64,000 nucleotides of DNA, from contig JAHEFF010000001.1 in NCBI GenBank assembly GCA_024640315.1, forward strand, positions 1 to 64,000, read 5' to 3'. The translations under genes were made by a program, and so were the position numbers. Numbering within the stretch: the stretch's first letter is position 1; the number at the start of each line of letters is the position of its first letter. Below, one piece after another: positions 58,286-61,442 of this stretch. The notes beneath the pieces are model-generated. The model did not search any database, was not told the origin of the DNA, and worked only from the letters and a program-made list of their open reading frames with translations. This DNA comes from Woeseiaceae bacterium. Lineage in GTDB: Bacteria > Pseudomonadota > Gammaproteobacteria > Steroidobacterales > Woeseiaceae.

Positions 58286-58354
58286 GGGTAGTTTGACGCG
58301 CAGGGAAATTCGAGCCGTAAATTATGGCACAGACCGGCGACCACTTGCGCTCAA

Positions 58355-58383
58355 CAAAAAACGCGCGGCAGGGCCGCGCGTTT
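58355..58383 (-). terminator. Rho-independent terminator for the BamE-like gene
   Basis: Arms AAACGCGCGGC (58359-58369) and GCCGCGCGTTT (58373-58383) pair over 11 bp with a 3-base loop. Read on the minus strand the GC-rich stem is followed by a run of T (complement of AACAAAAA, 58353-58360). It lies between the stop of the gene at 58407-58688 and the mfd start. Confidence 0.9.
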
Positions 58384-58406
58384 CGAAAAACTGCAGAAAT
58401 TCCCGT

Positions 58407-58688
58407 TTACTTTGAAACGGCGTGGATTACCTTGTCAAATTCGAAGAAGACGACGAAATTTGCATATTCCCAACGGGTGATCGGTGGGTCGCCGATAGCC
58501 TCACGCGCAGACTGCGGCGCGCCGAAGTTCGCCTCAACGCTGGCCTGGGTCATGCCCCGAGTTGGCTTGCCCGGCTGTTCGAACGTTGATGACCGGTCAC
58601 CGGCGCTGACGTCGAGATTCTGAGCTCCTGCTCCCATCGCAAAAGCGAGGGAAAGAGCGAAAACGAATTTTGTAATGACCTTTGCCAT
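58407..58688 (-). CDS. Small secreted protein, BamE/SmpA-like
   Basis: The 93-aa product (ATG 58688, minus) has GGAGG five bases upstream. A signal peptide (FVFALSLAFAMGAGA, cleavage near AQ/NLD) is followed by KPTRGMTQASVEANFGAPQSAREAIGDPPITRWEYANFVVFFEFDKVIHAV. The TRGMTQ, VEANFGAP and RWEY pattern resembles the SmpA/OmlA fold of BamE-like proteins. There is no lipobox Cys, so it is not a lipoprotein. Such small conserved proteins are common in Gammaproteobacteria; the role is unknown. A strong terminator follows it. Confidence 0.75.
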   Translation of the reverse strand: MAKVITKFVFALSLAFAMGAGAQNLDVSAGDRSSTFEQPGKPTRGMTQASVEANFGAPQSAREAIGDPPITRWEYANFVVFFEFDKVIHAVSK

Positions 58689-58860
58689 CTGTGCCTCCGG
58701 AGCTAGTCCCTGGCGACTATAACACCGCCTACAGGGCCAAAAAACAGTTGATTTGACAGGATTTTTACACTTTCAGCCCGCAAATCACGCTGACCTGGTT
58801 CTCAATATTGTTTCGATCGCCAGATTGAACTCACGGTAGCGCCCGGAGCTGCAGGTCGGA

Positions 58861-58876
58861 TGTGATCGCAGTCACA
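58861..58876. promoter_or_regulatory. CRP/Vfr/Clp-type binding site upstream of lolC
   Basis: TGTGA-TCGCAG-TCACA has both half-sites of the CRP consensus TGTGA-N6-TCACA without a mismatch. It lies 70 bases before the lolC ATG in the 258-base gap between divergent genes. The same gap holds a 12-bp perfect palindrome TGGCAGCTGCCA at 58913-58924 and, for the minus-strand gene, a TATAGT -10-like box at 58721-58716 (minus). Confidence 0.6.
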
Positions 58877-58946
58877 GTTTTGCAGCCACGCCGTCCGTTG
58901 GGATAGCAGCAGTGGCAGCTGCCATTTATGTGGTTTAATTCGCCGC

Positions 58947-60191
58947 ATGATCAATGCTGCCGAACTCTTCGTCGGGCTCAGGTACCTGCGGGCCAAAAGA
59001 AAGACGAGGTTCGTATCCTTTATTACTTTCATCTCGCTGGCCGGCATTGCGCTGGGCGTTGCCGCGTTGATCGTCATTTTATCCGTCATGAACGGTTTCG
59101 AAGGGGAATTACGCGACCGCCTGCTGAGTATGACGGCGCATGGCTACGTAACAGGTGATGATGGTTCCCTGGGCGACTGGCGTCGGCTGCGAGATGATGT
59201 CAGTAATGACCCCGGGGTCGTTGCAGCGGCGCCGTTCGTGGAAATGGAGGGCATGATTCGAACCGGTCGGTCACTGACCGGCGTGATGGTGCATGGCATT
59301 CTTCCCGAGGCTGAGAAAGAGGTGTCTGGCAGGACCGTCAATTTTGTCGAAGGATCTCTCGATTTACTGGTGCCTGGCGAGCGCAGTATTGTGCTGGGAC
59401 GTTTCCTGGCGATCGACCTCGGCGTCCGGATCGGCGACGGCGTCGTGCTGCTCATTCCGCGACCTGTAGGCGATGGAACGCTCGAGCCTGTGCTTGAAAG
59501 ATTCGTGGTTCGGGGCGTGTTCGAAGCCGGAGTACAGGATCACGATGCAACGCTTGCTCTGGTACACATCGATGATGCAGCACGGCTGCTTTCCCTTCGA
59601 GACCGGGTCACCGCGATCCGGTTCCTCACCAGCGAGGTCATGTCGGCACCGGAAGTTTCTGGACGCCTCGCCGCTCGGCTTGGTGCAGGTTATGTGACGA
59701 GTGACTGGACGATCGAAAATGCAAGTTACTTTCGGGCTATTCGCCTGGAAAAAATGATGATGTCGTTGTTGTTGTCGCTGATCATCGGGGTCGCTGCATT
59801 CAATATTGTTGCGAGTCTCGTGATGGTCGTGACTGATAAAACCACCGATATCGCAATACTGCGAACGCTGGGTATGAGCCCGGCTGACGTCGTTCGAGTC
59901 TTTTTTATTCAAGGTGCGGTGATAGGCTGGCTCGGCGTTTTCCTCGGGGTGGCAGCGGGAGTTGTGCTGGCGATCAATGTGCCTGTCGTGGTGCCGTTTC
60001 TTGAACAGCTGTTTGGTTTTCAGATAATGCCGGGCGACGTCTATTACGTGACGGCAATTCCATCCGTACTCGAAGTGGAGGATGTGATGGTCATATCGGT
60101 TGCCGCTTTCGTGCTGACGTCGTTAGCGACGCTCTATCCTGCGCGTCGTGCTGCGCACGTCAATCCGGCTATCGCGCTGAGGTATGAATAG
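58947..60191 (+). CDS. lolC: LolC/LolE-family lipoprotein-releasing permease (first copy)
   Basis: LolC and LolE with the ATPase LolD lift lipoproteins out of the inner membrane to LolA. The 414-aa product has an N-terminal membrane segment (about 24-46: FVSFITFISLAGIALGVAALIVILSVMNGF), a large periplasmic MacB-like domain (about 48-265) and three C-terminal membrane segments around 275, 325 and 375. MSLLLSLIIGVAAFNIVASLVMVVTDKTTDIAILRTLGMSP is the conserved FtsX-type motif. Which of the two permeases is LolC and which LolE is assigned by order only. Confidence 0.9.
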   Translation: MINAAELFVGLRYLRAKRKTRFVSFITFISLAGIALGVAALIVILSVMNGFEGELRDRLLSMTAHGYVTGDDGSLGDWRRLRDDVSNDPGVVAAAPFVEMEGMIRTGRSLTGVMVHGILPEAEKEVSGRTVNFVEGSLDLLVPGERSIVLGRFLAIDLGVRIGDGVVLLIPRPVGDGTLEPVLERFVVRGVFEAGVQDHDATLALVHIDDAARLLSLRDRVTAIRFLTSEVMSAPEVSGRLAARLGAGYVTSDWTIENASYFRAIRLEKMMMSLLLSLIIGVAAFNIVASLVMVVTDKTTDIAILRTLGMSPADVVRVFFIQGAVIGWLGVFLGVAAGVVLAINVPVVVPFLEQLFGFQIMPGDVYYVTAIPSVLEVEDVMVISVAAFVLTSLATLYPARRAAHVNPAIALRYE

Positions 60192-60194
60192 GCA

Positions 60195-61442
60195 ATGACC
60201 AGCAGATACGAATACTGGATCGGACGCCGATATGTGAAGTCCCGCAGCGCCAATGGATTCATTTCGCTGATTTCGGCGATTTCCATGCTTGGAATAGCGA
60301 TTGCCGTGGCGGTTTTGATTGTCGTCTTGTCAGTTGTTAACGGGTTTGAACGAGAACTGCAGGACCGGCTTCTTGCGATGTCGGCGCATGCCAGCATCGA
60401 GAGTTCCGACGGCCGCTTGTCAGATTGGCAGGCATGGGTGGAAATTGCCGAGCGGCAGCCGGATGTGACAGCTGCGGCACCATTCGTCAATGGCCAGGGA
60501 CTCCTGGTATTTGGTAACAATCTGAGCGGCGCGGAATTACGTGGTATCGATCCGACCCTTGAAGCCAGAGTATCCGGGGTAGGAGGTACGGTGCTTGAGG
60601 GCGATCTGGAGAGCCTGACCGCCGGTCAGTTTAATATCGTGCTTGGGATAGAACTGGCGAAGGAGCTGCAGGCGTCAATAGGGGACAAGTTAACGTTGAC
60701 GCTTGCCGAAGGCACGGTTACGCCTGCCGGCTTGATGCCGCGCTACCGCCGATTCACCGTAAGCGGAATTTATCGCGTCGGGATGTACGAGTTCGATCGT
60801 CGCTTGGCGTTTGTCAATATCGAGGATTCCCAGAAACTGTTTCGAAAGGGTGACGACGTGAGCGGCATTCGCCTCGCGGTTGCCGATATCTTTAATGCGC
60901 CAAATACCGTTCGGGAAGCGGCACTCGCCGGAGGCGGCGGAGTGCTGGTTAGCGATTGGACTCGCCGACACGTCAATTTCTTTCGCTCAATTCAAATCAC
61001 GAAATCGATCCTGTTTGTGATTCTCCTGATGGTGATTGCTGTTGCGGCGTTCAATATCGTTTCGACGCTCGTAATGGTCGTCAGGGACAAGCAGGCCGAC
61101 ATCGCCATACTGCGCACGGCCGGTGCGACACCCGGCGATATATTGCGGGTATTTGTAACCCAAGGAACCGTGATCGGCGTACTGGGTACGTTTTCCGGCA
61201 TGGTTCTCGGTGTTTTGTTGTCATTGAATCTGGAAGGTATCGTTCATTTCATGGAAGCGAGTTTTGGCGTTAAATTCCTGGCGGCGGATGTGTATTTCAT
61301 CAGCGACTTGCCAGCTGACCTGAGAATTCCGGACGTTGTTCGGATTTGTTCCATCGCGCTCGTGCTTGCGCTGTTATCGACGCTTTACCCGGCATGGCGG
61401 GGCGCGAAGACTTCACCCGCGGAGGCACTTCGCTATGACTGA
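60195..61442 (+). CDS. lolE: LolC/LolE-family lipoprotein-releasing permease (second copy)
   Basis: The 415-aa product has the same layout as its neighbour: YWIGRRYVKSRSANGFISLISAISMLGIAIAVAVLIVVLSVVNGFERELQDR at the start, a periplasmic domain, and FVILLMVIAVAAFNIVSTLVMVVRDKQADIAILRTAGATPG near residue 275. LLSTLYPAWRGAKTSPAEALRYD ends it. It is three bases downstream of the first permease and overlaps lolD by eight bases. Both permeases precede the ATPase, unlike the C-D-E order of E. coli. Confidence 0.9.
   Translation: MTSRYEYWIGRRYVKSRSANGFISLISAISMLGIAIAVAVLIVVLSVVNGFERELQDRLLAMSAHASIESSDGRLSDWQAWVEIAERQPDVTAAAPFVNGQGLLVFGNNLSGAELRGIDPTLEARVSGVGGTVLEGDLESLTAGQFNIVLGIELAKELQASIGDKLTLTLAEGTVTPAGLMPRYRRFTVSGIYRVGMYEFDRRLAFVNIEDSQKLFRKGDDVSGIRLAVADIFNAPNTVREAALAGGGGVLVSDWTRRHVNFFRSIQITKSILFVILLMVIAVAAFNIVSTLVMVVRDKQADIAILRTAGATPGDILRVFVTQGTVIGVLGTFSGMVLGVLLSLNLEGIVHFMEASFGVKFLAADVYFISDLPADLRIPDVVRICSIALVLALLSTLYPAWRGAKTSPAEALRYD

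What the first reader, a model, noticed from the sequence alone, without database searches (positions are those of the whole stretch)
58861..58876. Perfect CRP-type half-site pair in front of lolC-lolE-lolD
TGTGA-N6-TCACA matches the CRP consensus at all ten fixed positions. By base count alone, ten fixed positions are expected about 0.06 times in 64 kb. It is intergenic, between a minus-strand gene and lolC, and nearer to lolC (70 bases). Control of lipoprotein export by a CRP, Vfr or Clp homologue is not something I know to be described; it would tie envelope traffic to a second-messenger signal.
Basis: partly seen in the sequence, partly recalled or inferred. Interest (0 to 1): 0.5.

Follow-up and report, generated by a model that had tools for sequence, protein, structure and literature searches.

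The report
Shared CRP site between divergent genes
A near-certain binding site for the well-known cAMP-responsive regulator CRP sits between the lipoprotein-export operon and a small exported-protein gene read the other way in marine Woeseiaceae bacteria; it is conserved across the family, but spacing suggests it serves the small gene at least as much as lipoprotein export.

Summary
The site is real: TGTGATCGCAGTCACA at 58861-58876 is the only perfect match in the window (0.02 expected). The genome encodes a clear CRP orthologue. The intergenic region keeps a site with at most one mismatch in 68 of 80 Woeseiaceae regions (0.4 expected). In nine genomes of the window's genus both half-sites persist while the six spacer bases vary, the signature of CRP binding. 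So binding is very likely. Control of lolCDE is not shown. The site is shared with a divergent gene for a 93-residue exported protein. On a LolC tree its distance to that gene's -10 box changes 13 times, to the lolC -10 box 20 times; in one group the former is 68 bp in all 14 members while the latter runs from 20 to 255. In the window the site lies at about -77.5 from the predicted lolC start, where E. coli CRP barely activates (PMC6301791). Against this, 52-54 bp to lolC recurs in several lineages. Best reading: a family-specific CRP target whose main customer is probably the divergent gene; any effect on lolC is open. New member of a known kind.

The parts
58861..58876 (.). CRP-type site TGTGA-TCGCAG-TCACA (perfect)
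   Evidence: half-sites kept and spacer variable in 9 same-genus genomes
58931..58939 (+). predicted extended -10 of lolC, TG-G-TTTAAT; predicted start about 58946, so the lolC mRNA would be leaderless or nearly so
   Evidence: kept in nearly all Woeseiaceae and in many order-level relatives, nearly invariant in 9 same-genus genomes; start site inferred
58947..60191 (+). lolC
   Evidence: NCBIfam TIGR02212 (lolCE), 433.6 bits, cut-off 362.45
60195..61442 (+). lolE
   Evidence: NCBIfam TIGR02212, 476.1 bits
61435..62118 (+). lolD (start chosen by eye from the translation)
   Evidence: NCBIfam TIGR02211, 310.7 bits, cut-off 307.75
58716..58721 (-). predicted extended -10 of the divergent gene (TG-T-TATAGT on the minus strand), predicted start about 58709
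   Evidence: start site inferred
58407..58688 (-). divergent gene: 93-residue protein with a signal-peptide-like N-terminus (by eye) and a small alpha-beta domain, weakly like OsmE/BamE; no Pfam or NCBIfam hit
58789..58804 (.). element B, GCTGACCTGGTTCTCA: conserved, 3 mismatches to the CRP consensus, centred 75 bp from the divergent -10
58739..58770 (.). element A, AAAAAACAGTTGATTTGACAGGATTTTTACAC: conserved in the genus, unexplained

Best explanation
The site is a genuine operator for the cell's CRP (Vfr-like) protein, placed between two divergent extended -10 promoters. CRP, probably with cAMP, binds the two TGTGA half-sites. The most likely main target is the divergent gene for the small exported protein, which CRP would activate. 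The lolCDE promoter next door is a conserved, probably leaderless core promoter that CRP affects weakly, or represses in those relatives where the site overlaps its -35 or -10 region. Shown: the site, its conservation, the regulator gene, the spacing patterns. Inferred: binding, ligand, direction of control and target.
For: Site unique in the window. CRP orthologue: NF008732 at 317.8 bits (cut-off 266), aligned to E. coli CRP with the SRE..GR recognition residues kept; found in 78 of 99 genomes. Perfect sites are rare (0-3) in 20 of the 21 genomes without a CRP hit (the exception, G007 with 6, is a 71% complete assembly). In 80 Woeseiaceae intergenic regions 68 hold a site with at most one mismatch, 0.38 expected. 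Half-sites conserved, spacer variable. Distance to the divergent -10: 31 bp in 24 genomes, 68 in 14, 72-74 in 7, 80-81 in 5, while the lolC distance varies inside most of these groups. Tree with 65 scored tips: 13 changes for the divergent distance, 20 for lolC. In the window's genus the site also keeps helical phase with element B (72, 71, 50, and 82-83 in neighbouring genera; p about 0.06). In 9 genomes of the 31 bp group no TTTAAT remains because the site overlaps the lolC -10 region. Predicted centre at lolC -77.5; E. coli activation factors are 1.27 at -76.5 and 0.99 at -66.5, against 105 at -71.5 (PMC6301791, passages).
Against: Overall spread does not single out the divergent gene: median absolute deviation is 12 bp for lolC and 24 bp for the divergent gene over 57 regions. 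A lolC distance of 52-54 bp recurs in 16 genomes across seven divergent distances. In the window's genus the lolC distance is only 61-65 bp, as steady as the other side. Phase coherence is better on the lolC side (p 0.004 to 0.05) than on the divergent side (p 0.12 to 0.15), though centred on a phase unlike E. coli class I (post hoc, hand-made event lists). For the window itself the site is 159.5 bp from the predicted divergent start, far for direct contact. Start sites are predictions. No adenylate cyclase was found in this 85% complete genome, though 79 of 99 genomes have a class III cyclase domain.
Confidence: 0.58

Rival explanations
1. CRP directly controls lolCDE, by activation from about -74 to -78, tying lipoprotein export to cAMP; the divergent gene is co-regulated or unaffected.
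For: In 9 of 10 same-genus genomes with a readable upstream region the site is 61-65 bp from the lolC -10. A 52-54 bp spacing recurs in 16 genomes of other lineages. Phase coherence on the lolC side p 0.004-0.05.
Against: Positions -77.5 (window) and -64.5 to -66.5 (many relatives) are weak or dead for E. coli class I activation. lolC spacing runs from 20 to 255 bp in a group where the other spacing is fixed at 68. None of 21 order-level relatives, 19 with CRP, has a site with 2 or fewer mismatches before lolC. E. coli K-12 lolC has none (best 4 mismatches).
Confidence: 0.2
2. One site serves both promoters: CRP activates the small gene and represses or fine-tunes lolC.
For: Both spacings cluster; the site overlaps the lolC -10 region in 9 genomes and lies 20-23 bp from it in 14, where binding should hinder RNA polymerase.
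Against: No expression data; in the window the site is too far upstream to block lolC.
Confidence: 0.17
3. Chance match with no function.
For: One perfect site somewhere among many motifs a reader might notice is not very surprising; 11 occur in this genome.
Against: 68 of 80 orthologous regions keep a site, 0.38 expected; half-sites are conserved amid diverged flanks.
Confidence: 0.03

Closest known systems
E. coli CRP (CAP) operators and the CRP regulon
   Same: Same ten-base consensus TGTGA-N6-TCACA; regulator passes the NCBIfam CRP equivalog cut-off and keeps the recognition-helix residues.
   Different: E. coli lolC has no such site; here the target region is shared by lolC and a gene with no Pfam family.
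Vfr of Pseudomonas aeruginosa
   Same: Regulator about as similar to Vfr (about 261 bits) as to E. coli CRP (about 265 bits); other perfect sites in this genome flank pilin and FimV genes, reminiscent of Vfr control of twitching (recalled).
   Different: No lol target found: the P. protegens Vfr ChIP-seq paper PMC8160232 holds no 'lol' or 'lipoprotein' in its main text.
Clp of Xanthomonas
   Same: Same family and DNA consensus (recalled).
   Different: More distant (211 bits, 3iwz; that 3iwz is Xanthomonas Clp is recalled, the table says 'Catabolite activation-like protein'). Of the two Xanthomonas lol papers searched, the 12 (of 17) passages shown for PMC8739992 and all 10 for PMC6341742 describe no Clp control of lol genes.

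Membership tests
CRP operator | TGTGA-N6-TCACA or close to it | tested here: met
   10 of 10 fixed positions
CRP operator | half-sites under selection, spacer free | tested here: met
   alignment of 9 same-genus genomes
CRP operator | CRP-family regulator with matching recognition helix in the same genome | tested here: met
CRP operator | cAMP made in the cell | tested here: inconclusive
   no class I or III cyclase found in this 85% complete genome; class III domain in 79 of 99 genomes
CRP operator | protein binds the DNA | not testable with these tools
   needs EMSA or ChIP
class I CRP-activated promoter (lolC) | site centred near -61.5, -71.5/-72.5 or -82.5 | tested here: not met
   predicted -77.5 in the window, -73.5 to -75.5 in the other same-genus genomes with a site (rule from PMC6301791); start site is a prediction
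class I/II CRP-activated promoter (divergent gene) | site centred near -41.5, -61.5, -72, -82 or -92.5 | tested here: inconclusive
   relatives -43.5, -80.5, -84.5 to -86.5, -92.5/-93.5 (computed); window -159.5, with the weak element B at -87.5

The most novel reading that the evidence does not exclude
A CRP site in a shared divergent region that is held in place for a cAMP-controlled envelope gene while being kept off the activating face of, or over, the essential lipoprotein-export promoter: a one-way switch that couples a small OsmE/BamE-like exported protein to cAMP and either spares or restrains lolCDE, in a family abundant in marine sediment.
Probability: 0.2. Interest if true: 0.45.

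Novelty: new member of a known kind. Interest (0 to 1): 0.3.

Why it matters
If CRP controls either gene, cAMP status would reach the outer-membrane assembly machinery in a family common in marine sediment (PMC7082342, abstract start in listing). No such link was found in the searches, nor for the terms searched in the E. coli genomic-SELEX paper PMC3105977. It also shows how a site noticed before a famous operon can belong to its obscure neighbour.

Tried and rejected
Looking for a sigma-70 promoter with a -35 box found none in 58650-58980; the -10 boxes are argued from conservation. Rfam gave no match in 58300-59100. The idea that Xanthomonas Clp is known to control lol genes was checked and not found in the passages shown. 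A PDB profile search for the divergent protein gave one hit, E 0.66. The Foldseek OsmE hit has E 0.3, so it is a lead only. Reading the divergent gene as the sole target was weakened by the recurrent 52-54 bp lolC spacing and by the phase test.

Rows dropped: 2 of 80 loci for short upstream sequence (L115, L153) and 42 as duplicates, 22 order-level rows were left out, and of 84 Woeseiaceae rows 4 without a divergent-gene match were not scored (G048, G025, G015, and L130, whose contig holds only 155 upstream bases), 5 of 80 for short LolC (G017, G018, G059, G049, L144), and 10 of the 75 tree tips carry no site or no divergent distance. Expected counts come from sequences regenerated by a first-order Markov chain, not exact shuffles. 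G048 has no CRP hit and no divergent gene yet keeps a one-mismatch site before lolC (site row); this is against a simple CRP-loss rule.

Full report
Observation. The sequence TGTGATCGCAGTCACA is at 58861-58876. It is the only perfect match in the window and nothing else matches with one mismatch. Shuffles give 0.02 expected perfect matches. The genome has 11 perfect sites in 3.55 Mb against about 2.5 from base composition, and none for the reversed pattern. Of the other ten sites, two lie inside larger reading frames by my rough gene calls (one within ribonucleotide reductase, one near the start of a 324-residue frame) and two in short doubtful frames. Neighbours include two pilin genes, a FimV-domain gene and an HD-domain/DUF3391 gene.

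Setting. The site lies between lolC-lolE-lolD and a minus-strand gene for a 93-residue protein. lolC starts at 58947. Seven bases before it is TTTAAT preceded by TGG, an extended -10 box with no ribosome-binding site, so the transcript is probably leaderless. The motif recurs across the family and in many order-level relatives. The minus-strand gene has its own extended -10 (58716-58721) and, by eye, a GGAGG before its ATG. Its product is conserved next to lolC: 80 of 84 Woeseiaceae regions have it (one of the four misses is a contig end). It has a signal-peptide-like N-terminus and a small alpha-beta domain (AlphaFold, pLDDT mostly over 90 from residue 41 on). The best structural neighbour is OsmE, at an insignificant E of 0.3. 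Close loci belong to Woeseiaceae metagenome assemblies.

Regulator. A 217-residue protein on contig C7 passes the NCBIfam CRP equivalog cut-off (317.8 against 266 bits). It aligns with E. coli CRP along its length, with SRE..GR of the recognition helix kept (that these residues read TGTGA is recalled). Orthologues occur in 78 of 99 genomes. Of the 21 genomes without a hit, 20 have 0-3 perfect sites; G007, 71% complete, has 6. Genomes with CRP have 1 to 24. No class I or class III adenylate cyclase was found in the window's own genome, which is 85% complete; 79 of 99 genomes have a class III domain.

Conservation. In nine same-genus genomes the intergenic region has diverged except for five blocks: the two -10 boxes, elements A and B, and this site. 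In the site the ten fixed positions hold (one change, the last base, in three genomes) and the six spacer bases vary. The tenth readable same-genus genome, G006, has no site. Across 80 Woeseiaceae regions 68 have a site with at most one mismatch, 10 of them perfect; 0.38 and 0.04 are expected. Of the 12 without, 8 have an element-B-like motif. None of 21 order-level relatives has a site with two or fewer mismatches, although 19 have CRP. E. coli K-12 has none before lolC. So this is a family-specific CRP target.

Which gene. Distances were measured from the site centre to each -10 box. To the divergent gene: 31 bp (24 genomes), 68 (14), 72-74 (7), 80-81 (5), 92 (2), 143-147 (8, the window's genus) and singles. 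Inside the 68 group the lolC distance takes eight values from 20 to 255. Inside the 31 group it is 23, 52, 53 or 72, or undefined in nine genomes where the site overlaps the lolC -10 region. On a LolC tree with 65 scored tips, binned lolC distances change 20 times and divergent distances 13. That favours the divergent gene. Against it: 52-54 bp to lolC recurs in 16 genomes across seven divergent distances; the overall spread is smaller for lolC (median absolute deviation 12 against 24 bp); and a post hoc phase test gives p 0.004-0.05 for lolC and 0.12-0.15 for the divergent gene. The preferred lolC phase is roughly opposite to E. coli class I positions, and the divergent phase is within about 2 bp of them. 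I read this as CRP being kept from activating lolC, but the numbers are weak.

In the window. The site centre is at -77.5 from the predicted lolC start and -159.5 from the predicted divergent start. In E. coli the CRP-RNA polymerase factor is 105 at -71.5, 83 at -72.5, 1.27 at -76.5 and 19 at -82.5 (PMC6301791, passages seen). The other same-genus genomes with a site are at -73.5 to -75.5. Element B, a three-mismatch CRP-like sequence, is centred at -87.5 of the divergent gene. Its spacing to the strong site is 72 in seven same-genus genomes, 71 and 50 in two more, and 82-83 in three from neighbouring genera: near whole helical turns apart (p about 0.06). This suggests the two work together for the divergent gene, but it is not proof.

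Literature. Searches combining lolC or lolCDE with CRP, Vfr, Clp, cAMP, regulon or catabolite repression found no report of CRP control of lolC (listings; passages seen in PMC8739992, PMC6341742, PMC12802237; term searches without hits in PMC8160232 and PMC3105977). The library holds open-licence papers only.

Verdict. A real, conserved CRP operator, and an ordinary kind of element. The regulatory claim about lolCDE is unproven and, on spacing, less likely than control of the divergent gene.

Noticed in passing
58929-58949: lolC seems to be transcribed as a leaderless mRNA: TGTGGTTTAAT seven bases before the ATG, no Shine-Dalgarno, pattern kept across the family and in many order-level relatives.
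   Followed up: partly
58739-58770: Element A, AAAAAACAGTTGATTTGACAGGATTTTTACAC, is strongly conserved upstream of the divergent gene in the genus and does not match the CRP consensus; unidentified.
   Followed up: partly
58407-58688: Uncharacterised family of roughly 87-100 residue exported proteins next to lolC (15 invariant columns among 40 sequences), no Pfam or NCBIfam model; weak OsmE/BamE resemblance.
   Followed up: partly
L103:2383 and L096:67: Other perfect CRP sites of this genome lie between two pilin genes and before a FimV-domain gene.
   Followed up: partly
L185 (G048): A reduced 1.5 Mb relative with no CRP hit and no divergent gene still keeps a one-mismatch site starting 45 bases before lolC.
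   Followed up: partly
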